The notes beneath the pieces are model-generated. The model searched no databases. It had not been told where the DNA came from and worked only from the letters and a program-made list of their open reading frames with translations. Positions 1-22,341 of a DNA stretch of 23,430 bases are shown here, piece by piece. A program made the position numbers and the translations under genes. The stretch is from JBBIVP01 sp037439705 [NCBI: bacterium] (lineage in GTDB: Bacteria; JBBIVP01), in assembly GCA_037439705.1 (NCBI GenBank), contig JBBIVP010000009.1:1-23430 (forward strand). The letters run 5' to 3'. Position 1 is the first letter of the stretch; every line of letters starts with the position of its first letter.

Positions 1-1081
1 GAACTTCCTGAAGGATAACTATCCTTCTCGTTTTCTCTTCAGGTGGGACATCGTCAGTAAGTTTTTCTGCAGATGTGCCAGGTCTTGGGGAGTATTTGAA
101 AGAGAAGAAGTTGTCAAACCGAACCTCTTCTACCAGTGATAAGGTATCTTTAAAGTCTTTTTCCGTTTCAGACGGAAATCCAACTATGAAATCGCTTGTA
201 ATAGCAATATCAGGTCTTACACTTCTCAACTTCTTTACGAGCATTAAATAATCCTCCCTCGTGTACTTTCTGTTCATTCTCTTAAGGATTCTGTTTGAAC
301 CGGATTGTGCAGGAAGATGAATTTGCTCGCAGAGTTTTTCAACTTCTCCAAAACACTTTATTATATCATCTGTAAGGTCTTTCGGGTTGGATGTCAAAAA
401 CCTTATCCTCTTTATTCCATCTATGAGGGAAATTTTTTTGATTAAATCAGCAAGGGATATCCCGAATTCCTTTCCGTAGGAATTCACATTCTGTCCGAGA
501 AGTATGACTTCTTTGATTCCATTTTCTGCATGTGCTTCACATTCCTTTAAAATATCTTCCATACTTCTTGAAATCTCCCTTCCCCTTACAAAAGGAACTA
601 TGCAGTAGGAGCAGAAGTTGTCGCAACCTTCCATTATTGTTACATAAGCCTTTACTTTTCCCATATATGTGCTTTCAAAATTCCGCTTTCCATCTCCTTT
701 CCTTTCGGTGAGAATTATCTTCCTTTCTCCCCCTTCTATTCTTTCTAATAATTTTTGGAAAGAAGAAAGGGCAGGCGGTCCCATTACAAAGTCCAGAAAC
801 GGGACCCCTTCAAATAAATTTTCCTTTCTCTCCTGTGCCACACATCCTGTAATACCAATTAAAGCCCCCCTTTTTTTGAATCTTTTCAACCTTCCAAGAA
901 GACTTAATGCCTTGTGCTCGGATTTTGACCTCACACTGCAGGTATTTACGATTATTATGTCAGCAGAAGATGGTTCATCAACCTCCTCATACCCCATTGA
1001 GAGCATAACCCCCCTCATCCTTTCGCTGTCGTCCTCATTCATCTGACATCCGAAAGTCTTTATGTAAAACCTTTTTCCCAT
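1..1081 (-). CDS. miaB: tRNA-2-methylthio-N6-dimethylallyladenosine synthase MiaB, 3' end cut by the window
   Basis: MiaB is a radical SAM methylthiotransferase that adds a methylthio group to C2 of i6A37 in tRNAs reading UNN codons. Reading the minus strand from ATG at 1081 gives about 360 residues with no stop. The N-terminal UPF0004 domain carries the three cluster cysteines C12 (KTFGCQMN), C48 (VNTCSVR) and C80 (ITGCVAQ). The radical SAM triad C153, C157, C160 sits in EGCDNFCSYC, followed by IVPFVRGRE. The C-terminal TRAM domain would lie outside the window. The first ATG is favoured because it begins the conserved MGKRFYIKTFGCQMN start. It is divergent from xerC, with 133 bp between them. 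It is assigned to MiaB rather than MtaB or RimO by the QMNEDDSERM and NTCSVR segments. Confidence 0.95.
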   Translation of the reverse strand, partial: MGKRFYIKTFGCQMNEDDSERMRGVMLSMGYEEVDEPSSADIIIVNTCSVRSKSEHKALSLLGRLKRFKKRGALIGITGCVAQERKENLFEGVPFLDFVMGPPALSSFQKLLERIEGGERKIILTERKGDGKRNFESTYMGKVKAYVTIMEGCDNFCSYCIVPFVRGREISRSMEDILKECEAHAENGIKEVILLGQNVNSYGKEFGISLADLIKKISLIDGIKRIRFLTSNPKDLTDDIIKCFGEVEKLCEQIHLPAQSGSNRILKRMNRKYTREDYLMLVKKLRSVRPDIAITSDFIVGFPSETEKDFKDTLSLVEEVRFDNFFSFKYSPRPGTSAEKLTDDVPPEEKTRRIVILQEV

Positions 1082-1088
1082 GCATATT

Positions 1089-1117
1089 ATTTTCCTTTTT
1101 GTGATGAATTATTTCAA
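1089..1117 (-). promoter_or_regulatory. Candidate miaB promoter, near-leaderless
   Basis: On the minus strand, TTGAAA (1112-1117) is followed after 17 nt by GAAAAT (1089-1094). This ends 7 nt before the miaB ATG. The -10 matches the consensus at 4 of 6 positions, so this is the weakest of the promoters proposed here. An AGGA about 11 nt before the ATG could be a poor Shine-Dalgarno site, which would argue for a short leader instead. Confidence 0.35.
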
Positions 1118-1133
1118 GTGGAAGTATTTAGAA

Positions 1134-1151
1134 GGTGAGAACGTTCACTCC
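1134..1151. promoter_or_regulatory. Imperfect palindrome between miaB and xerC
   Basis: GGTGAGAACGTTCACTCC is an 18-bp imperfect palindrome with a perfect 8-bp core, GAACGTTC, centred at 1142/1143. It lies between the proposed -35 boxes of the divergent miaB and xerC promoters, upstream of both, where a dimeric regulator could bind. No second copy was noticed and no regulator is recognised, so the operator role is inference. Confidence 0.3.
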
Positions 1152-1177
1152 TGTATCAGCACGAATAGGGTCGGGAT

Positions 1178-1206
1178 TTGCTTTTTTTCTGTTTATTTAT
1201 TATCTT
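1178..1206 (+). promoter_or_regulatory. Candidate leaderless promoter of xerC-hslVU
   Basis: TTGCTT (1178-1183), a 17-nt spacer, then TATCTT (1201-1206) ends 8 nt before the xerC ATG. Transcription should start at about the A of the ATG. No Shine-Dalgarno sequence lies in the AT-rich stretch before the start. The same TATCTT -10 is seen upstream of nfeD. Confidence 0.5.
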
Positions 1207-1214
1207 TTATATAA

Positions 1215-2090
1215 ATGGTAAAAAAGGATTTTTTAAAAAGTTTTTGTGAATTTCTTAAAAAGGAGAAAGGAGCTTCCTTACACACGATAAGGGCTTACAG
1301 AAAAGATGTAGAGGGGTTTCTTGATTTTCTCAAAAAAAATTATTCAATTTCCGTGGAGAATACAAAGCCCCTTCATATAAGGGCATTCCTTGTTTCTTTA
1401 AAAAATCTCAAGAAAAGTTCATCGTTCAGGAAAATTTCAGCCATAAGAACCTTTTTTAATTATCTTATATATGAGGGGAAAACAGAGGTAAATCCTGCAT
1501 CCCTGATAGAAATGAGGGGCAGGGAGAGGAAACTTCCTTCATTCCTTAGCGTGGAAGAGGTTTTTTCCATTCTTGATTCAGAAGTGGTAATGGAATCAAA
1601 AAGGGATAGGGCTATTCTGGAATTTCTTTATGACACAGGGCTTAGAATTTCAGAACTTCTTTCTTTGAGGTTGAAAGACATTGACCTTAAAGAAAGGGTT
1701 GTTCTTGTTAAAGGAAAAAGGGGGAAGGAAAGGATTGTTCCCGTTGGAAAAAAGGCTGTAAGGGCTGTTGAGGAATATCTGTGCGAAAGAAATGAAACAA
1801 ATCCCGAATCCTTTCTTTTTTGGGGAAGAAATAATAAGCCATTATCAGACAGAACCGTGAGGAGGCTCGTTAAGAAATACAGCATTTTATGCGGGATTCC
1901 AAAAAGAGTTACACCCCATACCATGAGGCATACCTACGCAACACATCTTCTTGAAAGCGGTGCAGATATAATAACCATTCAGGAACTTCTCGGGCATTCA
2001 ACCATAGCGAGCACCCAGCAATATCTTCATTCGTCTGTTGGAAGGCTCATGGAGGTTTATGATAGGACGCATCCAAGGGCCAAAAAATGA
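1215..2090 (+). CDS. xerC: Tyrosine recombinase XerC/XerD family
   Basis: This is a site-specific tyrosine recombinase of 291 residues, the usual Xer length, probably resolving chromosome dimers at a dif site. An N-terminal SAM-like core-binding domain (about 1-95) contains the typical HTIRAYRKD. The C-terminal catalytic domain carries R144 ([11 protein letters not shown]), a Lys in the VKGKRGKER hairpin (K166 or K168), H235 and R238 ([12 protein letters not shown]), H261 (LLGHSTI) and the nucleophile Y270 (QQYLH). All of the catalytic set is present, so it should be active. It heads an operon with hslV, whose ATG overlaps its TGA; linkage of xerC to hslVU (clpQY) is also known in Firmicutes. 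XerC and XerD cannot be separated by eye, and if only one Xer exists in this genome it may be XerH-like. No mobile-element context is present. Confidence 0.9.
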
Positions 2091-2623
2091 AGGAGATTTT
2101 GAGAGGAACAACTGTTCTCTGTATAAGAAAGGGAGAAAAGGTTGTTATGAGCGCAGATGGGCAGGTGACATTGGGGAGCCTTGTGATGAAAAAAAATGCG
2201 AGGAAAATAAGACCTCTTCTTGAAGGAAGGGTGCTTGCGGGATTTGCAGGTGCCACTGCTGATGCCTTTGCTCTTTTTGAAAGGTTTGAGAAGAAACTGA
2301 ACGAATATGCGGGAAACCTTTTAAGGGCTTCGGTGGAACTGGCAAAGGAGTGGAGGACGGATAAATATCTTCAGAGACTTGAAGCAATGCTCCTTGTTGC
2401 TGATAAAATGAAAACACTTGTTATATCTGGAACGGGTGATGTAATAGAACCCGAGGATGAGGTCATAGCCATTGGTTCGGGAGGTGCATACGCTCAGGCT
2501 GCTGCAAAGGCTCTTCTACTTCACACCAATATGCCCATAAAAGAGATTGCACTTGAGGCTATGAAGATAGCTGCTTCTTTATGCATATATACCAATGAGC
2601 ATATAATTCTGGAGGAATTATGA
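2087..2623 (+). CDS. hslV: ATP-dependent protease HslUV, peptidase subunit HslV
   Basis: HslV (ClpQ) is the proteasome-like threonine peptidase that forms the double hexamer core of HslUV in the cytoplasm. At 178 residues it is near the family length. The N-terminus [15 protein letters not shown] fits removal of a short propeptide to expose Thr8 as the catalytic N-terminal threonine. Next comes the family motif [19 protein letters not shown], then the helix [13 protein letters not shown] and the conserved [18 protein letters not shown]. The ATGA overlap with xerC and the overlap with hslU at the other end indicate translational coupling. An AAGGG lies about 8 nt before the ATG. Confidence 0.97.
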
Positions 2624-3978
2624 TGGAGATAGTAGAAGTTGACAGGATGGAATTTTTGACTCCAAATCAGATAGTGAGGGAACTTGACAAATACATTGTT
2701 GGGCAGAAGGAAGCAAAGAGGGCGGTTGCTATTGCACTTAGAAACAGGTGGAGGAGGATGAGAGTTAACGGTAAGATGAAAGAAGAAATATCTCCGAAGA
2801 ACATTATTATGATAGGTCCTACAGGAGTTGGAAAAACAGAAATAGCGAGGAGACTTGCCCGTCTTGTTGATGCTCCGTTCATAAAAGTGGAGGCAACAAG
2901 GTACACCGAGGTTGGATATGTGGGGAGGGATGTGGAATCCATAATAAGAGATCTGGTGAACATATCTGTTAACGAGGAAAAGGCACGGGAGAAAAAGAAG
3001 GTTTTTGAGAAAGCGAAGCAGAACGCTGAAGAGAGGCTACTTCATATTCTTTATCAGACATTTTCAAAAAAATATAAGAGCCAATCTGAGGAAGAACAGA
3101 TTACAAAGGGAAAATTAAGAAGTCTTCTCAGGGATAAGATGTTGGAGGAGGAGTACATAGAACTTGATGCAAAAGACCAGTTCATGCCTGTGGTTGAGAT
3201 TGTGGGAGGAATTGGTGGATTTGAAGAAATAGAAACACATCTGAGAGAAATGCTTGGAGGTATGTTTCCTGGTAGAGAAAGGAAAAGAAGGATGCAAGTC
3301 AAAGATGCACGGGAGTTCCTCGTTGAGGAGGAAGCGGAAAAACTTATAGATAATTCAAAGGTTATAAAGAATGCTATAAAAAGGGTTGAAGAACTTGGGA
3401 TAGTTTTTATAGATGAGATAGACAAAATTGCTGGAAGAGAAAAGGGATATGGTCCTGATGTTTCAAGGGAGGGTGTTCAGAGGGATTTGATTCCCATTGT
3501 GGAAGGTACAACTGTAAATACCAGATATGGACCGGTAAAAACAGAACACATACTTTTTATAGCAGCAGGTGCATTTCATGTCTCAAAACCATCTGACCTC
3601 ATTCCAGAGATTCAGGGCAGATTTCCAATAAGGGTGGAACTTACTCCTCTCGGCAAGGATGATTTTGTGAGAATTCTGACAGAGCCTGAGAGTGCGCTTA
3701 CGAAACAATACGAGGAGCTTCTCAGAACCGAAGGTATTGAACTGGTTTTTGATAATCAGGCAATTGAAGAAATTGCAAGTATTGCAGCAGAGATAAACAG
3801 CAGAAGCGAAGACATAGGGGCAAGAAGGCTTCATACGGTTATGGAAAAACTCCTTGAAGACATCCTTTTTGAATCTCCCGATATAGGAACCAGAAAAATT
3901 GTTATAACAAAGGATTATGTGATTCAAAAATTAAGAAGCCTCCTGAAAGACGAGGACATAACGAGATACATTCTCTGA
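2620..3978 (+). CDS. hslU: HslUV protease, AAA+ unfoldase subunit HslU
   Basis: HslU (ClpY) is the hexameric ATPase that unfolds substrates and feeds them to HslV. The 452 residues show Walker A GPTGVGKT (66-73), the pore loop GYVG (99-102), the family-specific I domain (about 110-240, Lys/Glu-rich with GGIGGFEE), Walker [11 protein letters not shown] (261-270) and a sensor-2 region around [14 protein letters not shown]. The extreme C-terminus TRYIL is the tail that docks into HslV and triggers the peptidase, so the pair should be functional. A GGAGGAATT ribosome site precedes two consecutive ATGs (2620 and 2623). The second is better spaced, so the true start may be one codon in. It overlaps the hslV stop and touches the following response regulator. 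Confidence 0.97.
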
Positions 3979-5423
3979 TGGAAAGAATTCTTGTAGTAGA
4001 TGATGACATAGAAGTAGCAAAGGATATAAAGGAGGTGCTTTCGCAATCCTATGAGGTTGACTTTACAGTCGACGGCAAAGAAGCCCTGAAGATGTTTTCT
4101 GAAAGAGATTATGCACTTGTTCTTGTAGACATAATTATGCCGGGTATGCACGGAATTGATGTTTTGAAGGAAATAAAGGCAAAGAAAAAAGAAACGAAGG
4201 TTATAATGATGGCAACTCCTCTTGAAAAAATTCTTGTTGAAAAGGCTCTTCAGATGGGAGCGGATGATTTTATAAAAAAACCAATAAATGTAGAAGAGCT
4301 TTTTAAAAAAATCAGCGTTTCCGTTGAGGAAAAACAAGTAGTTTCTCTTCCCCAAAAACCTGACCTTTTTGAGGTTCTTTCAGGCCTGCAAAAGGAATTT
4401 CTTGAAGGAAAGATGAAAACAGAAAGCGATGTTCTCCATTCCATACTTGCTTCTTTGAGCAAATTATTAATGGCAGAAAGGGTTTCGGTCACCATAATAG
4501 ATAAGGAGTCAGGAACCCTCAGGCCATTTCAGGGTATAGGCGTGGAATTTAAAGATGAAGGAGGACCATTCCTGAAGGTTGGAGAAGGAATTGCGGGGAA
4601 GGTGGCTTTGACAGGAGAGCCAATCCTTGTGAAAAATCTTGAAAAAGAAGGGCTTCCGCCGTCAAGGTATGGCTACAAATACAAAACCCAATCTTTTATA
4701 TGTGCTCCAATAAAGGTGAGGGGAGAAGTTATAGGGGTTATAAGCGTTAACGACAAATTGAGCAGGGAAAGTTTTACAGAAGATGACCTTTCTCTTCTCC
4801 TCACATTTTCCTCACAGGTTGCCTCAATTATTGACAGTGTCCTTTCAAGGATTGAAATGGAAGAACTGGAATTGAAAAAAAAGATATCCGAAAGTATGCT
4901 CTCACTACTTCTTTCTGGGCTGGAGCCATCTTTCATATACAATGGAATTTTTGAACTGGTGAAAGAATTTTTGGAGGCAGAAATAATGTGGATTGTGGTT
5001 GAGGAACCTGGAACCGGAGATTTTCACCTTGAATATGCAGGAGGTGTGGAATTTAAGAAAACTCCTCTCAAGGGGATTTATAAAGGATTAACCGGGAAGG
5101 TGATATATAGCAAGCGCCCTGTAAAATCGTCTGATTTGAAAGAAAGCTTTTCCGAGAGTGAGATTTATTTCGCTCAAAAAATCAGGGATTGGATTGGTTC
5201 TCCAATTCTCCTGAGGGGGAGACACATAGGAGGTTTTTTTGTGGCTAACAAAATAAGTGGGGCATTTGCTCAAAAAGATGCAGAGAACCTTTCGTTTCTT
5301 GCAAAATTTTCCGCTCTTGCCCTAAAGGAGTTCTGGCTCCACGAAAACCTCGTAAAAGCCCTTGACCAGATAACAGAAAAGGAACTGGAGCTTGAAGAAA
5401 TAAAAAAAGGATCCAGAGTTTAG
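3978..5423 (+). CDS. Response regulator with two GAF-like domains and no recognisable output domain
   Basis: The receiver domain (about 1-118) has the acidic pair D8/D9, phosphoacceptor D51 (LVLVDIIMPGMHG), T80 and K101 (IKKP), so it should be phosphorylated by a partner kinase. GAF domain 1 spans about 140-290 (the GEGIAGKVALTGEPILVKNL and ICAPIKVRGEVIGVISV segments are diagnostic). A second, more divergent GAF-like region lies at about 305-455 (YKGLTGKVIYSKRPVKSSDL, IGSPILLRGRHIGGFFVANK). The last 30 residues look like a short coiled coil. No HTH, GGDEF, HD-GYP, PP2C or kinase motif is visible, so the output is unknown and may be protein-protein. Its ATG overlaps the hslU stop by one base (TGATG), implying coupling to the protease operon. 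The stop overlaps that of the convergent radical SAM gene. Confidence 0.85.
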   Translation: MERILVVDDDIEVAKDIKEVLSQSYEVDFTVDGKEALKMFSERDYALVLVDIIMPGMHGIDVLKEIKAKKKETKVIMMATPLEKILVEKALQMGADDFIKKPINVEELFKKISVSVEEKQVVSLPQKPDLFEVLSGLQKEFLEGKMKTESDVLHSILASLSKLLMAERVSVTIIDKESGTLRPFQGIGVEFKDEGGPFLKVGEGIAGKVALTGEPILVKNLEKEGLPPSRYGYKYKTQSFICAPIKVRGEVIGVISVNDKLSRESFTEDDLSLLLTFSSQVASIIDSVLSRIEMEELELKKKISESMLSLLLSGLEPSFIYNGIFELVKEFLEAEIMWIVVEEPGTGDFHLEYAGGVEFKKTPLKGIYKGLTGKVIYSKRPVKSSDLKESFSESEIYFAQKIRDWIGSPILLRGRHIGGFFVANKISGAFAQKDAENLSFLAKFSALALKEFWLHENLVKALDQITEKELELEEIKKGSRV

Positions 5424-7066
5424 TAAGTATTTCTCAAATTATAAAATGTCACCTTCGTCTTTGGCTGAATGACATCCCCAAAAAATTTAATCTGTATCTC
5501 CTTCTTTTTACCCAGCATAAAGAGGGATGTGCCTAAGAGGTAATCTATTGGACCCATTTTTCCAAAATCCCTTTCAATCTCTTTCCTTAGAGTTCTGATT
5601 CTTTCAGCCATTTCTTTTTTTGGAACAAGCTTTTCTGCTGCCCACAGGATTGGTTTATAAATTCTCGTTCTCTTTTTTATTTTTTCAGCCCTTCTTTTGA
5701 GAACAGGACTTTTTGAATTCAAAAGGTTGGGATATGCTCTGTAATCCACTTCAATGGCTCTGACAAGGGTTGGACCGAGTTCATAATAATCTTTGAGATA
5801 TGCCTCCCTCTGCAGGATTTCAGATTCGTAAGGAGTAAAATGCGGATGTTTGAACCATATCTGTTTGAAGCCGTGCCTGTCTTCAAGAGAGATTGAGTGC
5901 AGAATCCTGTTTTCCTTCAACATCTTCTTCCATAGAGTTGTCCCCTGAGCAATGGATAGATGTGCGAACTGGCTGAAGGTTGGCTTCATTGAAAGATGCC
6001 AGTTTATGTCCTCCCACACATTTTCCTTGGTATGTTCGTCAAGGCAGAGAATGGAAGAAAGAACGGTCTTTATCCCGAAACTTTCAAGTTCTTTTACAAG
6101 AGCTGGAAGGTCAACATTTATGTTCTTTGGGTAAAGCCTGAATTTTGATTCAATTCCAAGCCATACTATTCCAAGTCCAAGTTCTGCAAGAAATTCAGGT
6201 TCATATTTTATGAGATTATTTGCCGAACTGAAAGAAAGCGAAATCTCGTAATCCTTTTCCTTTCCAACTATGAGTGAATGAAGTTCTTTTACCTTATCTT
6301 CGTCCTTGAAGAAGTTTTCATCCCCTACAAATGCAAATCTCTTTACTCCATATTTTCCCTCCTGTTCGTTCATTATTTCAAAAATTTCCCTTCCGGTGTT
6401 CAAAAAGGGAATGTATCCTCCTTCAAAAAATTGTCCTGTTGAACAGAAATCACATCTTTCATAACATCCCACCCCTGTTGCTATCATTGAAACGAGATGC
6501 CCTCTTTCCATTGATATTCCGAGTTTCCTCATCGTTTCTCCGATAAGATGTACAGGAATGCCCATTACTTCAAGGACTGACATAAATACTGGAGGATGCC
6601 TGAAGGAAAATTGAACGGGTTTTCCAAGAAGACTTCTCATAAACCTTATTCCCTCACCCCTGCACACATAGTCTACATCAACTATTCTTTCAATGTCATC
6701 AATCATCGTGCCAAAACCACCTATTATGATTTTTGATTTTGGAGAAACCTCTTTTATTATTTCTACCATCTTTTTCATCTTCAAAAAATTTGGCTGGATA
6801 AAGGTTATTCCGATGTATTCATAACATTTCTTTATTTCTTCTATGAATCTCTTTATGGTTGGCCAGTCCAAAACTGTAACAGGAGTATCAATGTTTGCTG
6901 CTATGACATGAAGGTTGAGGGAAGGGTACCTTTCCCTGAAACTGAATATTCCCTGATAACGGGTGAGTTGATTGTGAGAGAGTTCCGGTATGTTTTCCTT
7001 TCTTCCAAACTGGTCGTCCACACCGCACGGTTTAAATATAGATGTAAGAAGGACTTTTTTTTCCAT
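5420..7066 (-). CDS. Radical SAM protein with N-terminal B12-binding-like domain, function unknown
   Basis: The protein has 548 residues from the ATG at 7066. Residues 1 to about 150 resemble the Rossmann-like cobalamin-binding fold of B12-radical SAM proteins (a YIGITFIQPNF strand, a KIIIGGFGTMIDD strand-loop, then DYVCRGEG), but the DxHxxG cobalamin-ligand motif is not seen. The 4Fe-4S site is CYERCDFC (C201, C205, C208), followed by a TIM-barrel-like region with FVGDENFF and IVWLGIESK. The C-terminal 150 residues are basic and unassigned. A GTG at 7084 would add six residues. The ATG is preferred because a promoter -10 ends 8 nt before it and the GTG falls inside that promoter. It is divergent from a GNAT gene across a shared inverted repeat. 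The substrate cannot be told from the sequence. Confidence 0.8.
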   Translation of the reverse strand: MEKKVLLTSIFKPCGVDDQFGRKENIPELSHNQLTRYQGIFSFRERYPSLNLHVIAANIDTPVTVLDWPTIKRFIEEIKKCYEYIGITFIQPNFLKMKKMVEIIKEVSPKSKIIIGGFGTMIDDIERIVDVDYVCRGEGIRFMRSLLGKPVQFSFRHPPVFMSVLEVMGIPVHLIGETMRKLGISMERGHLVSMIATGVGCYERCDFCSTGQFFEGGYIPFLNTGREIFEIMNEQEGKYGVKRFAFVGDENFFKDEDKVKELHSLIVGKEKDYEISLSFSSANNLIKYEPEFLAELGLGIVWLGIESKFRLYPKNINVDLPALVKELESFGIKTVLSSILCLDEHTKENVWEDINWHLSMKPTFSQFAHLSIAQGTTLWKKMLKENRILHSISLEDRHGFKQIWFKHPHFTPYESEILQREAYLKDYYELGPTLVRAIEVDYRAYPNLLNSKSPVLKRRAEKIKKRTRIYKPILWAAEKLVPKKEMAERIRTLRKEIERDFGKMGPIDYLLGTSLFMLGKKKEIQIKFFGDVIQPKTKVTFYNLRNTY

Positions 7067-7074
7067 CAGATTGA

Positions 7075-7103
7075 ATAATAACACACCTACCCCATTTTTC
7101 CAA
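7075..7103 (-). promoter_or_regulatory. Candidate leaderless promoter of the radical SAM gene
   Basis: On the minus strand TTGGAA (7098-7103), a 17-nt spacer, and TATTAT (7075-7080, 5 of 6 to consensus) end 8 nt before the ATG at 7066. Transcription should begin at or within two bases of the start codon. This placement decides the start: the upstream GTG at 7084 would lie before the transcript begins. Confidence 0.55.
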
Positions 7104-7120
7104 AAGGTCTTGACTTTTTG
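7101..7120. promoter_or_regulatory. Inverted repeat over both -35 boxes of the divergent radical SAM and GNAT promoters
   Basis: CAAAAGGTC-TT-GACTTTTTG is an inverted repeat with 8 of 9 complementary pairs around a 2-nt centre (7110-7111). Its left arm overlaps the radical SAM -35 (7098-7103) and its right half covers the GNAT -35 (7110-7115). A dimeric protein bound here would block or recruit polymerase at both promoters. The geometry is seen directly; the operator role is inference. Confidence 0.45.
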
Positions 7121-7140
7121 AGAGCATTCGTGATTATAAT
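7110..7140 (+). promoter_or_regulatory. Candidate leaderless promoter of the GNAT gene
   Basis: TTGACT (7110-7115) and a perfect TATAAT (7135-7140) are separated by 19 nt, longer than the optimal 17. The -10 ends 6 nt before the ATG, so position +1 would be the A of the start codon. The long spacer could mean that activation needs a regulator at the overlapping inverted repeat. Confidence 0.55.
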
Positions 7141-7146
7141 AAACTT

Positions 7147-7761
7147 ATGAAGGTAATTTTGAGAGATTATCCGAAGGAATTTACGCTGAAGGACAAAAAA
7201 ACGAAAGTGGTTTTAAGACCCATGGAGGCTTCTGACAGAAATGCCCTTCTAAAATTCTTCCTGACTCTGAGCGAGAAAGACCTCCTTTATCTGAGGGATG
7301 ATGTGACAAAGGAAGAGACAATAGACAAGTGGATTAAGAACATAAATTATGAAAGGGTATTTCCCCTTCTTGCAATTCACGAAAAATCAATAGTTGCAGA
7401 CGGAACCCTCCACAGGAATGAGTTCAGCTGGACAAGGCATGTGGGAGAGATAAGAATAGTGGTTGCTGAAAAATTCAGAAGGAAAGGGCTCGGCTTTATT
7501 ATTCTGAAAGAGTTATTTTACATTGCTCTTCGCATGGGACTTCACAAGATAATTGCTGAGGTTGTAGAAGATGACCTTTCGGGAGTGAGGATGTTTGAAA
7601 AACTCGGGTTTCAGAAAGAGGCACTTCTGAAGAACCATGTAATGGACCACAGAGCAGTAAAACACAACCTTCTTATTATGAGCAACGATGTGGAGGCTCT
7701 TCTGAGGCACATGGCAGATCTGGAGAAAGAACTTTTTCCTTCAAGACCTATGGAAGGATAG
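7147..7761 (+). CDS. GNAT family N-acetyltransferase
   Basis: This 204-residue protein has one GNAT fold. The acetyl-CoA binding motif A is IRIVVAEKFRRKGLGFIIL, with the pyrophosphate loop RRKGLG at 111-116. The following VVEDDLSGVRMFEKLGF is the usual motif B helix-strand. The N-terminus (VVLRPMEASDRNALLKFF) is typical of RimI/PhnO-like proteins. The substrate is unknown; small-molecule amine or protein N-terminal acetylation are both possible. There is no Shine-Dalgarno site, but a consensus -10 lies 6 nt before the ATG. It is divergent from the radical SAM gene and 39 bp ahead of nfeD, which has its own promoter in that gap. Confidence 0.85.
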   Translation: MKVILRDYPKEFTLKDKKTKVVLRPMEASDRNALLKFFLTLSEKDLLYLRDDVTKEETIDKWIKNINYERVFPLLAIHEKSIVADGTLHRNEFSWTRHVGEIRIVVAEKFRRKGLGFIILKELFYIALRMGLHKIIAEVVEDDLSGVRMFEKLGFQKEALLKNHVMDHRAVKHNLLIMSNDVEALLRHMADLEKELFPSRPMEG

Positions 7762-7765
7762 TTAT

Positions 7766-7794
7766 TTGACATAAGTTATTTTATCTTATATCTT
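7766..7794 (+). promoter_or_regulatory. Leaderless promoter of nfeD
   Basis: A perfect TTGACA (7766-7771), a 17-nt spacer and TATCTT (7789-7794) end 6 nt before the nfeD ATG. This is the best-formed promoter in the window. There is no room for an untranslated leader or Shine-Dalgarno site. Confidence 0.65.
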
Positions 7795-7800
7795 TAAAAT

Positions 7801-9069
7801 ATGAAGAAATTTTTGTCACTTTTACTGTTAATTGGTTGTTTAAAAGCGAATGCAGATGAAAAAAGGGTTTTTGTTGCGGAGATTGATGGACCTATTAATC
7901 CGGCTGTTCAGGAATACATAGGAAGTATTATAGCGCGGTCTGATAGAGAGAGACCTGAACTCATTTTGATTTTAATGGATACTCCGGGAGGTCTGGATGA
8001 GTCCATGAGGAAAATAATAAAAGATATTGAGAATTCAGAAGTTCCTGTTGCAGTTTTTGTTTATCCAACAGGAGCAAGAGCTGCTTCTGCTGGTGCAATT
8101 ATTACCCTTTCCGCTCATATTGCAATTATGGCGCCCGGAACAAACATTGGCGCAGCCCATCCAGTTGCGATGGGTGGTAAAGAAATGGACGAGGAGATGA
8201 AGAAAAAGGTGGTCAATGATGCAGTTGCATTTGCAAAAAGCCTTGCAAAAAAGCACGGAAGGTCAGAGGTGTGGGCTGAAAGGGTGGTGAAGGAAAGCAT
8301 TTCCTCTACCGCTGATGAGGCATTGAAAGAAGGCGTAATTGAATTCATAGCAAGAACTCCTGAAGAGTGTCTTGAAAAGCTTGATGGATACAAGGTAAAC
8401 ACTGTTTTCGGAGAGAAAGTTTTGAATACAAAGGGAGCAAAGCTTGTGAGGATAGAAATGGGGTGGAGGGAGAGGGTCCTTAACACATTTTCAAATCCGA
8501 ATATAGCCTACATCCTCCTTATGATAGGAATGTGGGGAATATTTTTTGAACTTTCCCACCCCGGAGTAATATTTCCTGGCGTTGTCGGAGCAATATGTCT
8601 TATACTCGGATTGTACTCCCTTCACACCCTTCCCGTAAACTTTGCGGGTGTTCTTCTTATTCTGCTCGGGCTCATTCTATTCTTTGCAGAGATAAAACTC
8701 ACAAGTTATGGTATGCTTGCGCTTGGAGGAATTATTTCAATTCTTCTCGGAACCATACTGCTTCTCAAATCCTCTCCTCCCTACTATCAGTTTTCATTAA
8801 AAGTTGTTCTGCCATTATTTGTATTTACCGTTATTTTTTTTGGAACCCTTGCCTACATAGCAATTACCGCTCAGTTTCAGAAACCTTTTGTTGGAATTGA
8901 AGCACTTATCGGTGAGGAAGGAGAGGCAGTTACGGATATTGACCCCGAAGGGAAGGTCTTCGTTCACGGAGAATACTGGAATGCTTTTTCGGAATATCCG
9001 ATAAAAAAGGGAGAAAAGGTAAAGGTGGTGGACATTAAGAGATTTAAGGTTATTGTGAAGCGGATATAA
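7801..9069 (+). CDS. nfeD: NfeD-family membrane serine protease, long (ClpP-domain) form
   Basis: The 422 residues follow the long NfeD1b plan. An N-terminal signal is followed by a periplasmic ClpP-like protease domain (about 22-205), four or five membrane helices (about 235-365), and a C-terminal OB-fold NfeD domain (from about 375; IGEEGEAVTDIDPEGKVFVHGEYWNAFS). In the archaeal homologue 1510-N the dyad is Ser97/Lys138. Here Ser96 lies in GARAASAGA and a Lys at 134-136 (EMKKKVVND) fits the partner. The family cleaves stomatin-like membrane proteins. The signal is ambiguous: LIGC at 10-13 could be a lipobox, while ANA/DE at about 19 could be a signal peptidase I site. No slipin/stomatin gene is adjacent, although the two usually pair. 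It has its own leaderless promoter and is convergent with atpG. Confidence 0.92.
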   Translation: MKKFLSLLLLIGCLKANADEKRVFVAEIDGPINPAVQEYIGSIIARSDRERPELILILMDTPGGLDESMRKIIKDIENSEVPVAVFVYPTGARAASAGAIITLSAHIAIMAPGTNIGAAHPVAMGGKEMDEEMKKKVVNDAVAFAKSLAKKHGRSEVWAERVVKESISSTADEALKEGVIEFIARTPEECLEKLDGYKVNTVFGEKVLNTKGAKLVRIEMGWRERVLNTFSNPNIAYILLMIGMWGIFFELSHPGVIFPGVVGAICLILGLYSLHTLPVNFAGVLLILLGLILFFAEIKLTSYGMLALGGIISILLGTILLLKSSPPYYQFSLKVVLPLFVFTVIFFGTLAYIAITAQFQKPFVGIEALIGEEGEAVTDIDPEGKVFVHGEYWNAFSEYPIKKGEKVKVVDIKRFKVIVKRI

Positions 9070-13510: not shown

Positions 13511-13520
13511 CTTTTCCTCC

Positions 13521-14180
13521 TTACATTGGAATAACTGGAAGTTTTATTTCTTTCCTTTTCTTCAATATATCGTTCATGGTAAGGTTTACAGCATTCAGTA
13601 TGACATACCCATCAATAAAATCAAGGATATTGATGCAGGCATAGTCCTGTTCAATGAGAGAAAAAGATGTGTATGGAAGTTCAAGAAAATGGATGAGAAT
13701 GATCCTGTTTACCCCTCCATGTGCGACAATACCTATCCTTTCCGCAGGGTCTTCTCTTAAAATTCTTTCTATTACCGGTATTACCCTTCTTTCCAGTTCA
13801 ATCATATTTTCTCCACCGGGAAACTTTTCGTGAGGAAGGATTTTTCTGAAACCGGTCAAAATCGGGGAATTTTTAAGAATCTCCTGTGCTTCAAGAACAT
13901 GTGTGTTTTCAATATCTCCTGTGGAAAACTCCCTCAGGAGCGGTTCTACCTTTACAGGAATTCCTGTTTTTTTGCTTATTATCTCTGCAGTCTCAAGTGC
14001 TCTTAAAGCATCTGATGACCAGAGACTTTCAATGCCAACTTCCTTTATACCTTCCGCAAGAAATTCTGCCTGTTTCTTTCCGGCTTCTGAAAGCGAATTC
14101 CCTGGGTAAGTCCTGATAATTCCATCCTCCCCTATCGGAAATGCGTGAGCATGTCTTATCAGATACAATCTCTTCCTCAT
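13521..14180 (-). CDS. Histidine phosphatase superfamily (phosphoglycerate mutase-like) protein
   Basis: The 219-residue protein has the RHA motif at its start (LYLIRHAHAF), with H9 as the phosphoacceptor. The second catalytic His is in IGIVAHGGVNRIIL (about 148-161). The Arg/Glu elements around SSDALRALETAEIISKKTG and VEPLLREF complete the site. It is probably a cytoplasmic phosphatase (CobC/SixA/GpmB-like). The substrate is not decidable and it should not be called a glycolytic mutase. It lies between tatA and bactofilin in the same direction. No good ribosome site precedes the ATG. Confidence 0.85.
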   Translation of the reverse strand: MRKRLYLIRHAHAFPIGEDGIIRTYPGNSLSEAGKKQAEFLAEGIKEVGIESLWSSDALRALETAEIISKKTGIPVKVEPLLREFSTGDIENTHVLEAQEILKNSPILTGFRKILPHEKFPGGENMIELERRVIPVIERILREDPAERIGIVAHGGVNRIILIHFLELPYTSFSLIEQDYACINILDFIDGYVILNAVNLTMNDILKKRKEIKLPVIPM

Positions 14181-14211: not shown

Positions 14212-14415
14212 TCAATTTTTGTTGGTTGTGTCCTTTTTATCTACTTCCTTATTTTCCTCTTTTCCAGGCTCTATTTCCTTTGAGGAAAGTGCTTTCTTGA
14301 ATTCCCTTATCGCCTTTCCAAGCCCTGAAGCAAGTTCTGGAAGTCTCTTTCCTCCAAAAAGAAGCATTATGATAAAAAGAATAAGAAGTATCTCTGTCCA
14401 TCCTATATTCATCAT
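14212..14415 (-). CDS. tatA: Twin-arginine translocase subunit TatA/E
   Basis: This is a short pore subunit of the Tat system, which exports folded proteins. From the ATG at 14415 it has 67 residues: one membrane helix (about 4-20, [16 protein letters not shown]), the FG hinge ([14 protein letters not shown]), an amphipathic helix ([12 protein letters not shown]) and a charged tail. An AAAAGGAGT sits about 10 nt before this ATG, so an upstream in-frame start at 14448 is not preferred. No tatC or tatB lies in the window. It is placed between purH and a histidine phosphatase gene. Confidence 0.93.
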
Positions 14416-14450
14416 TTTTATTTTACTCCTTTTATTTTCATAAAGCAATT

Positions 14451-15965: not shown

Positions 15966-15983
15966 CTTCACCTCCTTCTAGTT

Positions 15984-17372: not shown

Positions 17373-18109
17373 GTCAGAACCTCTAATCCCTTAATCTCTA
17401 AAAATCTTTTAACAGTTTCATTTTTTGAATTCATTATTCCTTCAGGACTTCCTGTTTCAACAATTTTTCCATCCTCCATCATAGCAATTTTATCTGCAAT
17501 TCTAAATGTGGAAGCAATATCATGTGTTATAACAATAAAGGTTAAATTGAATCTCCTCTGTGTCTCCTTCATCAGCATGTCAATAGAATAGGCAGTAGGA
17601 GGGTCAACACCTGTTGTGGGCTCATCAAAAATTATGTATTCAGGGTCAAGTGCCATAGCCCTGGCAAGTCCGACCCTTTTCTTCATCCCTCCGCTCAATT
17701 CAGATGGATAAAGGGACTCAACATCCTTAAGCCCAACAACCTCTAATTTTTCCTTGGCCCTTTTTTTAATCTCCTCTTCAGAAAAATTTGAATGCTCTCT
17801 CATGGGGAATGCTACATTTTCCTCCACAGTCATTGAGTCAAAAAGGGCTGAGCCCTGAAAGAGCATGCCAAATTTTTTCACAATATCTTTCATCTTCCTC
17901 CATGAAAGTGATGTTATCTCCACTCCGTCTATATAGATTTTACCCCTGTCCGGTTTAAGGAGACCAATTATGTGTTTCACAAAAACAGTCTTACCACATC
18001 CAGACCTTCCAAGAATAACCGTTATCTTCCCCTTTTCAATCACAAGATTTATCCCTTTAAGAACATGATGGTCTCCAAACCACTTATGGAGGTATTCTAT
18101 AACAATCAT
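17369..18109 (-). CDS. mlaF: ABC transporter ATPase of the Mla-like lipid transporter
   Basis: This is the cytoplasmic ATPase that powers lipid movement by MlaE/MlaD. The 246 residues contain Walker A GRSGCGKT (34-41), a Q-loop in GMLFQGSALFDSMTVEENV (typical of MlaF/Ttg2A), signature LSGGMKKRVGLARAMALDP, Walker B YIIFDEPTTGVDP and switch His in VITHD. The ATG overlaps the mlaE stop (ATGA) and its own stop overlaps the mlaD start, so the three subunits are tightly coupled. Confidence 0.95.
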   Translation of the reverse strand: MIVIEYLHKWFGDHHVLKGINLVIEKGKITVILGRSGCGKTVFVKHIIGLLKPDRGKIYIDGVEITSLSWRKMKDIVKKFGMLFQGSALFDSMTVEENVAFPMREHSNFSEEEIKKRAKEKLEVVGLKDVESLYPSELSGGMKKRVGLARAMALDPEYIIFDEPTTGVDPPTAYSIDMLMKETQRRFNLTFIVITHDIASTFRIADKIAMMEDGKIVETGSPEGIMNSKNETVKRFLEIKGLEVLT

Positions 18110-18879
18110 GTCATAAATGCGGTAAGAAGGTAATCGCTCAAAAATATGAGGACAGAACTCAAAACAACGGAATGAGTGGCTGACATTCCTACCCCTCTTG
18201 CTCCGCCTTCTGCCTTCATCCCATTATAACAGCTTATGACCCCGATTAAATATCCAAAGAAAAAAGCCTTTTTTATTCCCATCCACATATCAGAGGTCTC
18301 AACATAATACTTCACCTGGTCAATGAAAACCTGAGGGGTTACGCCTACAATGCCCACAGTCACTATATAACACCCGAGTGTGCCTATGAAAGAAAATACA
18401 ATTGAAAGCATTGGAACAGCAAAGGTACTGGCAACCACCCTCGGAACAGCAAGATAGTGAACCGGTTCTACTGCCATTGTCCACAAAGCATCAATCTGCT
18501 CTGTAACCTTCATGGTCCCGAGTTCAGCTGCCATTGCAGAACCTGCCCTTCCTGTCACCATGAGGGCTGAGAGAACTGGAGAAAGTTCTCTTGTGAGTGC
18601 AAGAACAACCGTTGGACCTATGAGATATTCTGCACGAAATAGTTTGAATGCATGAGAGCTCTGAAGAGCAAAAACCATTCCTGTAAACAATCCCGTGAGT
18701 GTAATAATAAAAATTGATTGTGCGCCTATGAATTCCATCTGTTTGAGAAAAAGTCTGACCCTGTAGGGAGGAAAGAAAAAAAGGTATATAACCCTTAATC
18801 CTAAGAGAAGAAGACCACCTGCCTCTTCAAGAGCCTTTATTACAGCCCTTCCAACAATGCTGAATATCCTTTCCACCAT
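18106..18879 (-). CDS. mlaE: MlaE-family ABC lipid transporter permease
   Basis: This is the inner-membrane permease of the MCE lipid transporter. The family signature runs through IGAQSIFIITLTGLFTGMVF, then LTRELSPVLSALMVTGRAGSA and ELGTMKVTEQIDALWTM, with five or so hydrophobic helices. The start is uncertain. A TTG at 18897 gives 263 residues. The ATG at 18879 gives 257 and is chosen because a GGAG lies upstream (12 nt) and a promoter gives it a leader of about 24 nt. STAS protein MlaB and chaperone MlaC are not in the window, as in many non-proteobacteria. Confidence 0.93.
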   Translation of the reverse strand: MVERIFSIVGRAVIKALEEAGGLLLLGLRVIYLFFFPPYRVRLFLKQMEFIGAQSIFIITLTGLFTGMVFALQSSHAFKLFRAEYLIGPTVVLALTRELSPVLSALMVTGRAGSAMAAELGTMKVTEQIDALWTMAVEPVHYLAVPRVVASTFAVPMLSIVFSFIGTLGCYIVTVGIVGVTPQVFIDQVKYYVETSDMWMGIKKAFFFGYLIGVISCYNGMKAEGGARGVGMSATHSVVLSSVLIFLSDYLLTAFMT

Positions 18880-18909
18880 ATAATTCAACTTCTCCAAAAG
18901 TTTTATTCT

Positions 18910-18938
18910 ATTTTAGTTCAGAAAAATCCTAAATTCAA
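18910..18938 (-). promoter_or_regulatory. Candidate internal promoter of mlaE-F-D
   Basis: On the minus strand TTGAAT (18933-18938), 17 nt, and TAAAAT (18910-18915, 5 of 6) lie in the 117-bp gap after gmk. The -10 is 12 nt from the TTG and 30 nt from the ATG. The transcript should therefore have a short leader with GGAG, unlike the other promoters here. Confidence 0.5.
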
Positions 18939-19014
18939 AATAAGGTTTGAGGTGGTTTGAAAAAAACTGTTAAAATCCTTTCTTCAAAATATGCATTCAA
19001 CTTTTCCGAAAAAT

Positions 19015-19623: not shown

Positions 19624-20407
19624 GTTCCCTCATCTTTTCAAGTTCGTTTTTTATTTCAATACTAATGAGGGAGATTTTAAAATTTTCTGCCTTGTTGGTT
19701 AAGGTTGTTACCTCCCTCAGCATCTCCTGCTGAATGAACTGGATTTTTTTACCCACTTCATTTCCTTCTATTACCCTTTTCAGAAGGTTAAGATGCGAGT
19801 TGAGCCTTGAAAACTCCTCAGAAAAATCCCTGTTCTTGAGAATCTCTTCTTTTTCAGGAAATTTTGAAACTTCTTTCATGAGCCTTTTTTCAATTATGTT
19901 TTTTAATTTTCCTATTTTCTTTATTGCCTTTTCAATTCTTACTATACTTTTTTTCATTTCCCTTTTTATCTTTTCCCCTTCCCTTTTTCTCATTTCGTCC
20001 ACTTTCTTTATTGTCATGAGCAAAATCCTTTCAAACTCTTTTTTTTCACTTTCTTTTAGCAGAGTTTCTTCTTCACCTCTTTCTTTCATAAATAATAGAA
20101 AATCAGAAAAGGAAGGTTTCAGGTTGTAACCGCTTTTCTTGTTAAAAATTTCAACGCTTTTCAAAAATTCTTTAATATGCTTATCTTCAGGAATTTTATC
20201 CCTTGAAATTGAAACCTTCACCAGTATTTTTCCTCTTTTCAATTTTTCTCTGATGATTTTTCTTACAGGAATTTCAAGGTCAAAGAGTTCTTCCGGAAGA
20301 GAGGTAAAAATTTCTATAAATCTGTGATTCAATGATGAAATCAAAATCTCCACAGTTTTGCCATTTAAGACCTTCCTTATCCTTCCAAATCCAGTCATAC
20401 TTTTCAT
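19604..20407 (-). CDS. yicC: YicC family endoribonuclease-like protein
   Basis: YicC-type proteins are linked to RNA turnover and reported to have endoribonuclease activity. The 267 residues (family about 290) begin with the conserved MKSMTGFGR, followed by the N-terminal segment ILISSLNHRFIEIFTSLPEE, LEIPVRKIIREKLKRGKILV. They end with the DUF1732 region: RLNSHLNLLKRVI, QFIQQEMLREVTTLTNKA, and EIKNELEKMREHAQNIL. The middle is very Lys/Glu-rich. The ATGA overlaps the end of the DUF4416 gene. Confidence 0.95.
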   Translation of the reverse strand: MKSMTGFGRIRKVLNGKTVEILISSLNHRFIEIFTSLPEELFDLEIPVRKIIREKLKRGKILVKVSISRDKIPEDKHIKEFLKSVEIFNKKSGYNLKPSFSDFLLFMKERGEEETLLKESEKKEFERILLMTIKKVDEMRKREGEKIKREMKKSIVRIEKAIKKIGKLKNIIEKRLMKEVSKFPEKEEILKNRDFSEEFSRLNSHLNLLKRVIEGNEVGKKIQFIQQEMLREVTTLTNKAENFKISLISIEIKNELEKMREHAQNIL

Positions 20408-20928
20408 ATCCTTATTCTCCTTTTATATTCTTCTCTTTTAAGGTTAAAAATTTTTATAATTTTCTCGCTTCTGTAATCAGGGTATGTCCATGGAAGGGGC
20501 TCATAACTTCCTTTTCTGTAAATCAATGTTATTTCAGCAAAAACACCATTCCCGAGGTAGATTCTGTGAGAGTAATTTTTGAATGTGGATAGCACAATGT
20601 TTTCAAGTGTTAAATATCCCGGGTCTATGTTTACCTTTCTTTTTTCATTATCTGATAGTTGTCTTTCAATGGAATAGGAGAGATGCTTTAATCCAATTAT
20701 TTTTTCCCTCTCATTAAATTCCTCAAAAAACACAAAAATCCTTTTTAAAGGTTTTCCCATTTCTTCACAGTAGAAGTCAGTATAATTAAAATCCATCTCC
20801 TCAGATTTTTTTGAGATTTTCCAGCCATTCCGGGAAAGGAGTTCTATGGCTTCCTTTAAAGGTTCTTCTTTTTGATAGATTATGCTGGCAAAGAAATAGG
20901 CGGGTGGAGGAGGATTCGGATGGCTCAT
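20404..20928 (-). CDS. DUF4416 family protein
   Basis: A conserved protein of unknown function, 174 residues. Recognised features are the Pro-rich AYFFASIIYQKE start, a central FNEREKIIGLKHLSYSIE, KVNIDPGYLTLENIVLSTFK, and the C-terminal YRKGSYEPLPWTYPDYRSEK. These fit DUF4416, known mainly from deltaproteobacteria, Nitrospirae and related groups. It has no signal peptide or membrane segment, so it should be cytoplasmic. Four-nucleotide overlaps with the phosphohexomutase upstream and yicC downstream suggest co-expression with sugar-phosphate and nucleotide or RNA functions. The exact role is unknown. Confidence 0.8.
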   Translation of the reverse strand: MSHPNPPPPAYFFASIIYQKEEPLKEAIELLSRNGWKISKKSEEMDFNYTDFYCEEMGKPLKRIFVFFEEFNEREKIIGLKHLSYSIERQLSDNEKRKVNIDPGYLTLENIVLSTFKNYSHRIYLGNGVFAEITLIYRKGSYEPLPWTYPDYRSEKIIKIFNLKREEYKRRIRI

Positions 20929-22304
20929 ATGCCGAGTTTCTCTTTCAGGGAGGAAATCTGTTTTTCTGCTTCTTCCACGGTTGGGGCTTCAGAGTATATT
21001 CTTATAAGTGGTTCGGTTCCAGATGGACGAATAAGAACCCACCCTCCGTTGTGAAGCCTGTATTTCTTTCCGTCTATATTTTCTATCTCCAGAACCCTGT
21101 AATTTCCTATTTTCTCAAAATCCTTTAACTCAACTTTTTTATCCGGAGAGAGGGGGATGTCCTTTCTAACCTGAAAATGTGGTCCTATTTCCTCAAAGAG
21201 TTCCATTTTCAGCCTTTCAATGCTTTTATTCCTGTAACATGCCATCTCAAGAAGCATTAATGCTGAAAATATTCCGTCCCTTTCCATTGAATTGATGGAA
21301 ATTCCGATTCCTCCGCTTTCCTCACCTCCTATCAGTCCTTTTTTTTCAAACATCTTTTTTGATATGTATTTGAAACCTATCGGGGTTGTTATGCATTCAA
21401 GACCGTAATTTTTAGCGAGTTTGTCAATCATATCAGAGGTGGAGAAGTTTTTGAATACCTTTCCTTTCAATTTTCTGTCTTCTACAATGTGTTTGAATAG
21501 AAGGGCAAAAACTATATGTGGCGTCACAAATTTCCCCTCTCCATCCACAACCCCCACCCTGTCTCCATCACCATCTGTGGCAATTCCGGCAAAGGCATTT
21601 TCATCTATAACAGTTTTAGAAAGAACTGACAGATTTTCCGCTGTTGGTTCCGGTCTTCCTCCGCCGAAGTATGGGTTTATTTCTTCCCTTATTTCTATTA
21701 TTTCCCATTCAAGAGGTTCCAGGATGCTTTTTAAGTACCCTCTTCCCGCTCCATGCATAGCATCAACAACAATTTTTTTTGAGTTTTCCATAAAAAGTCG
21801 CTGGTCAATGATTTTCAAAAGGTGCTGGATGTAGGGAGATTTGAAGTCTTCTGATGGAACCTCAATTTTTTCCGTCTCTGGAACATCTACTTTTTCAAGA
21901 AGAGCCTCTATTTCGTTCGTGATTTCGTTCTCAGCAGGTCCTCCGAATTGGTTTTTTATTTTGAAGCCGTTGTAATAATATGGGTTATGACTTGCAGTTA
22001 TTACAACTCCACCGTCTAACTTTTTATCCATAATGTTCCATGAGATTTCAGGAGTTGGACTTGGTTCAGAGGAAACGCTCACGGAGATTCCATTTTTGAT
22101 AAGAACCCTCCCGCACTCCTTAGCGAATTCCTCAGACATAAATCTCGTATCGTATCCTATTATTACATTTTTAAAACCCTTTGACTTCAACCATTCCGCA
22201 TAGGCAGAGGCAATCTTTTTTACATTTTCAAATGTCCAGTCCTTTGCTATAACTCCTCTCCATCCGTCCGTTCCAAATTTTATATTCATCCATGCTTTTG
22301 CCAT
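20925..22304 (-). CDS. Phosphoglucomutase/phosphomannomutase family enzyme
   Basis: This is an alpha-D-phosphohexomutase that moves phosphate between C1 and C6 of a hexose. The 459 residues carry all four loops: the phosphoserine loop VITASHNPYYYNG (S105), the metal loop DGDGDR (244-249), the sugar loop GGEESGG (326-332) and the phosphate loop RPSGTEP (426-432). GEESGG and the KFGTDGWRG start are consistent with a PGM/PMM; specificity for glucose, mannose or glucosamine phosphate cannot be fixed, although the serine loop is not the GlmM type. The ATG at 22304 is supported by a promoter ending 7 nt upstream; a second Met six codons in is the alternative. It is the first gene of the sixteen-gene minus-strand cluster. 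Confidence 0.93.
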   Translation of the reverse strand: MAKAWMNIKFGTDGWRGVIAKDWTFENVKKIASAYAEWLKSKGFKNVIIGYDTRFMSEEFAKECGRVLIKNGISVSVSSEPSPTPEISWNIMDKKLDGGVVITASHNPYYYNGFKIKNQFGGPAENEITNEIEALLEKVDVPETEKIEVPSEDFKSPYIQHLLKIIDQRLFMENSKKIVVDAMHGAGRGYLKSILEPLEWEIIEIREEINPYFGGGRPEPTAENLSVLSKTVIDENAFAGIATDGDGDRVGVVDGEGKFVTPHIVFALLFKHIVEDRKLKGKVFKNFSTSDMIDKLAKNYGLECITTPIGFKYISKKMFEKKGLIGGEESGGIGISINSMERDGIFSALMLLEMACYRNKSIERLKMELFEEIGPHFQVRKDIPLSPDKKVELKDFEKIGNYRVLEIENIDGKKYRLHNGGWVLIRPSGTEPLIRIYSEAPTVEEAEKQISSLKEKLGI

Positions 22305-22311
22305 GTTAAAA

Positions 22312-22341
22312 AATATATATCAGGAGCCCTTATTTTATCAA
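22312..22341 (-). promoter_or_regulatory. Candidate leaderless promoter of the phosphohexomutase cluster
   Basis: On the minus strand TTGATA (22336-22341), 18 nt, and TATATT (22312-22317) end 7 nt before the ATG. An overlapping TATATA at a 16-nt spacing ends 9 nt before it. No Shine-Dalgarno site is present. The promoter lies immediately beside the 5' edge of the decayed gene on the other strand. Confidence 0.5.

What the first reader, a model, noticed from the sequence alone, without database searches (positions are those of the whole stretch)
1079..22341. Six transcription-unit starts all look leaderless, with -10 boxes 6-8 nt before the start codon
At miaB, xerC, the radical SAM gene, GNAT, nfeD and the phosphohexomutase, a sigma70-like -10 ends 7, 8, 8, 6, 6 and 7 nt before the start codon, with a -35-like box 17-19 nt further up. 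The best are TTGACA-17-TATCTT (nfeD), a perfect TATAAT (GNAT) and TTGGAA-17-TATTAT (radical SAM). None of the six has a well-placed Shine-Dalgarno site. Internal genes such as hslU, bactofilin, purH, tatA and gmk do. The contrast suggests leaderless first genes with SD-driven or coupled internal genes. Leaderless mRNAs are known in Actinobacteria and Deinococcus-Thermus; their use as a rule in this lineage would be worth documenting. The promoter calls were made by eye and AT-rich DNA gives false hits.
Basis: partly seen in the sequence, partly recalled or inferred. Interest (0 to 1): 0.6.

Follow-up and report, generated by a model that had tools for sequence, protein, structure and literature searches.

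The report
Leaderless promoters at operon starts
In this stretch of bacterial DNA the promoters of nearly all first genes sit so close to the start codon that their messages probably begin at the start codon itself, a known way of starting translation that seems unusually common here, though the bacterium could not be identified or tested genome-wide.

Summary
Enrichment at this distance is far beyond chance: summed score 20.7 against -0.3 +/- 4.3 in shuffles, p = 0.0013 after correcting for choice of distance, 5 of 6 first genes against 0 of 16 internal genes, and 9% of 492 first genes in AT-matched control DNA. Best explanation: sigma70-type promoters giving leaderless or nearly leaderless mRNAs. 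'A rule in this lineage' could not be tested: no genome is held and no close relative turned up. The mechanism is well documented, and control genome G542 shows it clearly. Verdict: new member of a known kind, modest interest.

The parts
1089..1094 (-). -10-like GAAAAT of miaB, 7 nt before ATG (start codon A at 1081); weak, 4 of 6
   Evidence: sequence; score 1.73
1112..1117 (-). -35-like TTGAAA of miaB, spacer 17
2..1081 (-). miaB, first gene (runs off the window)
   Evidence: TIGR01574 449.5 bits, cut-off 355.3
1178..1183 (+). -35-like TTGCTT of xerC, spacer 17; weak
1201..1206 (+). -10-like TATCTT of xerC, 8 nt before ATG
1215..2090 (+). xerC-like tyrosine recombinase, first gene; no alternative in-frame start within 30 codons
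   Evidence: TIGR02224 299.7 bits, below its cut-off 335.15
7075..7080 (-). -10 TATTAT (TG upstream) of the radical SAM gene, 8 nt before ATG
7098..7103 (-). -35 TTGGAA of the radical SAM gene, spacer 17
5420..7066 (-). radical SAM protein, first gene
7110..7115 (+). -35 TTGACT of GNAT, spacer 19; 6 bp from the divergent -35 at 7098-7103
7135..7140 (+). -10 TATAAT of GNAT, perfect, 6 nt before ATG
7147..7761 (+). GNAT-type acetyltransferase, first gene
7766..7771 (+). -35 TTGACA of nfeD, perfect, spacer 17; starts 5 nt after the last base of the GNAT stop codon
7789..7794 (+). -10 TATCTT of nfeD, 6 nt before ATG
7801..9069 (+). nfeD-like gene, signal-peptide-like N terminus at this ATG
22312..22317 (-). 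-10-like TATATT of the phosphohexomutase, 7 nt before ATG
22336..22341 (-). -35-like TTGATA of the phosphohexomutase, spacer 18
20925..22304 (-). phosphohexomutase, first gene; a second in-frame ATG at codon 6 is an alternative start
   Evidence: TIGR03990 320.3 bits, below cut-off
18905..18910 (-). -10-like TAGAAT of mlaE: 7 nt before the TTG at 18897, 25 nt before the ATG at 18879
18106..18897 (-). mlaE, a further unit start: seventh leaderless case if TTG is used, short leader with GGAG if ATG is used
   Evidence: TIGR00056 239.5 bits, above its cut-off 212.2

Best explanation
The six first genes are transcribed from ordinary sigma70-type promoters placed so that transcription starts at, or within about 0-3 nt of, the first base of the start codon. 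Their mRNAs are leaderless and would be started by a ribosome binding the 5'-terminal AUG without a Shine-Dalgarno site; downstream genes of the same units are reached by a Shine-Dalgarno site or by overlap with the preceding gene. Shown: promoter-like boxes at the right place and spacing, beyond chance and specific to first genes. Inferred: that RNA polymerase uses them, the exact 5' ends, and the mode of translation.
For: -10 score at gap 6-8 of 20.7 against -0.32 +/- 4.33, 0 of 2000 shuffles reach it, and the peak over distance is there; local shuffles p = 5e-5, look-elsewhere p = 0.0013, -35 boxes p = 0.00025; TATAAT gives the most matches of the 20 arrangements of its letters. Still p = 0.001 with miaB, xerC and the phosphohexomutase all dropped (local shuffle). 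5 of 6 first genes against 0 of 16 internal genes. Same ruler elsewhere: window ranks 1 of 74 loci; 5 of 7 in the window against 0.02-0.17 in 11 control groups; 9.1% of 492 first genes in AT-matched control loci, so P(5 or more of 6) = 3.5e-5 if genes are independent; with the automatic gene picker applied to the window too, 3 of 6 starts pass and the summed score has p = 0.001. Geometry read from the sequence: only 39 nt separate GNAT and nfeD and the nfeD -35 starts 5 nt after the last base of the GNAT stop codon, so this promoter leaves no room for a leader; the radical SAM and GNAT promoters sit back to back in 80 nt with 6 bp between their -35 boxes. The distance equals that in D. radiodurans, where a -10 motif lies about 6-7 bp upstream of ORFs and transcript levels rise after it (PMC12340547, section 7).
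Against: No 5' end is mapped. In 4 of 6 genes a better-scoring hexamer lies at another distance. miaB is weak (GAAAAT) and has AAGGA 11 nt upstream. Among 720 column orders of the weight matrix the true one ranks 2nd, close to several others. mlaE read from its ATG does not fit, and atpF1 (38-nt gap) has neither an SD nor a -10. The Shine-Dalgarno contrast is not significant at 5%. Window starts were set by hand while control starts were automatic; with automatic starts the window passes in 3 of 6, because nfeD and the phosphohexomutase drop out and mlaE (ATG) and a phosphoglycerate-mutase-like internal gene come in. One control locus, L118, reaches 4 of 4. Weight matrices are recalled E. coli frequencies.
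Confidence: 0.8

Rival explanations
1. Promoters are real but leaders are short (about 3-18 nt), not zero; ribosomes bind an unstructured AU-rich leader without a Shine-Dalgarno site.
For: Gaps of 8 nt (xerC, radical SAM), a better xerC hexamer at gap 11; an alternative phosphohexomutase start 15 nt downstream; mlaE read from its ATG has an 18-nt leader with GGAG. xerC of two genomes of another phylum, of which two genomes are held, has TAAACT 9 nt before ATG and no SD.
Against: The score peak is at gap 6-8; GNAT and nfeD have gap 6, which places the start of transcription on the A of ATG by the usual -10 to +1 distance (recalled).
Confidence: 0.15
2. The boxes are chance matches in AT-rich upstream DNA; the genes use leaders and promoters further up.
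For: Upstream DNA is 71% A+T and 4 of 6 genes have a better hexamer elsewhere; a simple scan finds many promoter-like sites in the window (67 against 41.1 expected).
Against: Local-composition shuffles, look-elsewhere test, the -35 test and the control panel all speak against it; the nfeD promoter fills the whole gap between genes.
Confidence: 0.05
3. Some start codons are misassigned and the true starts lie downstream behind normal leaders.
For: The phosphohexomutase has ATG at codon 6, near where TIGR03990 begins (profile position 4 aligns to residue 10); mlaE has TTG and ATG candidates 18 nt apart.
Against: Within the first 30 codons xerC has no other in-frame start; no downstream start of the radical SAM gene, nfeD or the phosphohexomutase has an SD match, GNAT has only a 4-nt match before a TTG at codon 5, and of four downstream ATGs of miaB only that at codon 26 has one (5 nt), inside the stretch matched by the MiaB profile from residue 4; nfeD's ATG opens a signal-peptide-like stretch (by eye).
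Confidence: 0.05

Closest known systems
-10 motif next to ORFs in Deinococcus radiodurans and the Deinococcus-Thermus phylum (PMC12340547)
   Same: -10 hexamer about 6-7 bp upstream of the ORF, leaderless mRNA, a second class of genes with an RBS motif (section 7).
   Different: There TANNNT, most often TACACT, with transcription data; here closer to TATAAT with -35-like boxes, sequence only, unidentified AT-rich organism.
TA-led leaderless genes of bacteria surveyed by Zheng et al. 2011 (PMC3160421)
   Same: TA-like signal around 12 bp upstream of the start codon counted from its first T (gap 6); TATAAT-like pattern in medium- and low-GC genomes (passages).
   Different: Survey averages are shares of genes per genome: 39.4% in Deinococcus-Thermus, 26.5% in Aquificae, 19.2% in Actinobacteria; here 5 of 7 first genes of one window, so the figures are not directly comparable.
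   Same: First genes with TATAAT-like boxes at gap 6-8: 14 of 45 and 6 of 33, against 6 of 74 and 4 of 88 internal genes; none of the 14 or 6 has an SD of 5 or more nt.
   Different: Smaller share of first genes than in the window, automatic starts; in G391 a second rise of the same height lies at gaps 22-24.

Membership tests
Bacterial leaderless genes of the -10-proximal (TA-led) type | sigma70-like -10 box about 12 nt (first T) before the start codon, i.e. 5-8 nt gap | tested here: met
   5 of 6 score 2.5 or more at gap 6-8, miaB weakly
Bacterial leaderless genes of the -10-proximal (TA-led) type | no Shine-Dalgarno site before these genes | tested here: met
   5 of 6 have none of 4 or more nt; miaB has AAGGA at 11 nt
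Bacterial leaderless genes of the -10-proximal (TA-led) type | signal concentrated at first genes of transcription units | tested here: met
   5 of 6 against 0 of 16 internal, p = 0.0002; atpF1 and mlaE are in neither set
Bacterial leaderless genes of the -10-proximal (TA-led) type | mapped 5' end at the start codon | not testable with these tools
   needs 5'-end RNA sequencing
Bacterial leaderless genes of the -10-proximal (TA-led) type | translation of the message from its 5'-terminal AUG | not testable with these tools
   needs ribosome profiling or reporter assay
Genome-wide leaderless rule in the window's lineage | peak of -10 boxes at gap 6-8 over all first genes of the genome or of close relatives | not tested
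   no genome held; no close relative found

The most novel reading that the evidence does not exclude
The window comes from a deep bacterial lineage, not represented in the genomes I could reach, in which leaderless initiation is the default for most first genes, a share as high as or higher than in the strongest groups known, with Shine-Dalgarno sites kept mainly for genes inside operons; even mlaE would then be leaderless, from a TTG.
Probability: 0.3. Interest if true: 0.45.

Novelty: new member of a known kind. Interest (0 to 1): 0.27.

Why it matters
Leaderless messages are read by a different initiation route and confuse gene-start prediction. Adding a further lineage, possibly with an extreme share, would help show how often bacteria arrived at this route and would warn that automatic start calls in such genomes need a leaderless model. 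It does not change the known mechanism.

Tried and rejected
Whole-genome test of the window's organism: not possible, no genome held. HslU in six phylum or class samples gave at best 60% (5 of 159 pass the cut), 64% (5 of 297), none (0 of 121; 0 of 30), 62% (3 of 118), 61% (6 of 142). Two wider draws that reached beyond the starting phylum gave at best 62% (9 of 386; 5 of 386), and the two held genomes of G958's phylum gave 62% and 59%. These cuts were strict, so weaker matches were hidden, and share genomes. AtpA reached 70% (31 genomes; 41 genomes), MiaB 52% (1 of 275 passes). Gene trees were unstable: the window joined different neighbours depending on genes and sampling, so no phylum is named. 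Viral contigs had no AtpA relative. Rfam: no match at the gathering cut-offs, so no known leader RNA or riboswitch reached its threshold.

Rejected: that the boxes are chance in AT-rich DNA. Not settled: whether mlaE is a seventh case; whether atpF1 has its own promoter. G958 and G1099 pooled (48 first genes) showed no peak, and G1051 had only 5 first genes. The other Aquificota pieces (64 first genes without G542) show no peak either, although the 2011 survey lists Aquificae at 26.5% (in 2 of 5 genomes). Among 61 AT-matched control loci with at least four first genes, L118 of G542 reaches 4 of 4, above the window's share, and L135 of G391 2 of 4.
Full report
What was checked. I worked with 24 genes in the window.

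The boxes. Each of the six boxes is at the place and distance claimed. nfeD has TTGACA-17-TATCTT-6-ATG, GNAT TTGACT-19-TATAAT-6-ATG, the radical SAM gene TTGGAA-17-TATTAT-8-ATG, the phosphohexomutase TTGATA-18-TATATT-7-ATG, xerC TTGCTT-17-TATCTT-8-ATG and miaB TTGAAA-17-GAAAAT-7-ATG. miaB has the weakest -10 and xerC the weakest -35.

Chance. Scored with a recalled E. coli -10 matrix, the six genes sum to 20.70 at gaps 6-8. Dinucleotide shuffles of the 60 upstream bases give -0.32 with standard deviation 4.33, and none of 2000 reaches the observed value; the 16 internal genes show no excess. The sum is highest at this distance; the best window not overlapping it reaches 9.0. Taken gene by gene the picture is less sharp: only the radical SAM gene and GNAT have their best hexamer there, the other four have a better one at another distance. 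Keeping the local base composition by shuffling only the last 24 bases gives p = 5e-5. Letting the distance vary over 43 windows gives p = 0.0013. Dropping miaB, xerC and the phosphohexomutase still leaves p = 0.001. The -35 boxes are better than chance as well, p = 0.00025. TATAAT beats the other 19 arrangements of its letters (28 matches of 36, next 26), though with the full matrix the true column order ranks 2nd of 720, so the exact motif is not pinned down.

Control panel. The same measure was run on loci from other bacteria. The window ranks first of 74 loci with at least four first genes (the window set was hand-picked, with mlaE counted from its ATG and nfeD left out). In grouped controls, 5 of 7 window starts pass, against fractions of 0.02 to 0.17 in 11 groups with 23 to 91 first genes each. 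In 492 first genes from loci of 31-46% G+C, 9.1% pass, which makes 5 or more of 6 a 3.5e-5 event if genes are independent. With the automatic gene picker on the window too, the set changes (nfeD and the phosphohexomutase drop out, mlaE from its ATG and the gene at 14180 come in), 3 of 6 pass, and random draws reach its sum with p = 0.001. The one control locus with a higher share, L118 at 4 of 4, led to genome G542. There, 14 of 45 first genes and 6 of 74 internal genes pass, and none of the 14 has a Shine-Dalgarno match of 5 or more bases. G391 shows a smaller and less clear version, 6 of 33 against 4 of 88, with a second rise of similar height at gaps 22-24. So the ruler detects a leaderless class where there is one.

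Geometry. Between GNAT and nfeD there are 39 bases, and the nfeD -35 starts 5 bases after the last base of the GNAT stop codon, so this promoter leaves no room for a leader. Between the radical SAM gene and GNAT there are 80 bases that hold two back-to-back promoters with 6 bases between their -35 boxes. Both follow naturally if leaders are absent (read).

First against internal genes. A strong -10 at gap 6-8 occurs in 5 of 6 first genes and 0 of 16 internal genes (p = 0.0002; mlaE and atpF1 are in neither set). The Shine-Dalgarno side is weaker: matches of 4 or more bases in 1 of 6 and 11 of 16 (p = 0.056), of 5 or more in 1 of 6 and 8 of 16 (p = 0.33). Of the five internal genes with no match of 4 bases, four overlap the preceding gene by 1 to 4 bases, which fits coupling; the fifth, at 14180, has a 31-base gap.

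Exceptions and doubts. miaB has AAGGA 11 bases before its ATG. mlaE has TAGAAT 7 bases before a TTG and 25 before an ATG; with TTG it is a seventh case, with ATG it has an 18-base leader that includes GGAG. The phosphohexomutase could start at codon 6, near where the family profile begins. atpF1 has neither signal.

Lineage. No genome is held for the window. HslU identities peak at 64% in sampled genomes, AtpA at 70% and MiaB at 52%; trees disagree. G958, from a phylum of which two genomes are held, shares the order xerC-hslV-hslU-response regulator, and xerC there and in G1099 has TAAACT 9 bases before ATG without a Shine-Dalgarno match, but the pooled first genes of those two genomes show no peak. 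I therefore cannot say that the pattern is a rule of the lineage; 5 of 7 gives a 95% interval of 0.29 to 0.96.

Literature. Zheng et al. 2011 (PMC3160421, passages) find TA-like signals around 12 bp upstream and report leaderless genes in 207 of 953 bacterial genomes; the group averages include 39.4% in Deinococcus-Thermus, 26.5% in Aquificae (2 of 5 genomes), 19.2% in Actinobacteria and 15.8% in delta-Proteobacteria (8 of 33 genomes). A 2021 paper (PMC9581028, passages) cites Lomsadze et al. 2018 and gives predicted leaderless transcription in 21.6% of bacterial species; the 2018 paper itself is not held. PMC12340547 (outline and one results section) places the D. radiodurans -10 motif about 6-7 bp upstream of ORFs in nearly a third of genes, with transcript levels rising after it; the heading of a section I did not read says it functions as the classical -10 region. 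PMC5397173 (passages) notes that leaderless mRNAs are reported especially for single and operon-proximal genes, and that upstream bias may also reflect ribosomal protein S1 sites. Two searches for leaderless initiation in candidate phyla returned 0 and 4 papers, none on the subject by title or shown abstract; that is thin evidence of absence.

Conclusion. The mechanism is known and widespread; what would be new is the lineage and perhaps the high share, neither of which could be established here.

Noticed in passing
window 22303-23430: Upstream of the phosphohexomutase the plus strand carries short broken ORFs, the last with an FG-GAP-like stretch (SPSIGDIDNDGRLEIA, read by eye, motif recalled); looks like a decayed or frameshifted secreted protein gene.
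   Followed up: no
   Followed up: no
window 3978-5423 and L161 4756-5685: A response-regulator gene directly follows xerC-hslV-hslU in the window and also in G958, from a phylum of which two genomes are held.
   Followed up: partly
L118, L201-L213 (G542): Clear leaderless class with TATAAT-like boxes 6-8 nt before ATG and no Shine-Dalgarno match of 5 or more nt, 14 of 45 first genes, while the other Aquificota pieces sampled show no such peak.
   Followed up: partly
window 7067-7146: Two divergent promoters packed in 80 bp with only 6 bp between their -35 boxes; RNA polymerases may exclude each other, which could couple the two genes.
   Followed up: no
L161 near 1952 and L166 near 2833: xerC in G958 and G1099 also lacks a Shine-Dalgarno match and has TAAACT 9 nt before ATG.
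   Followed up: partly
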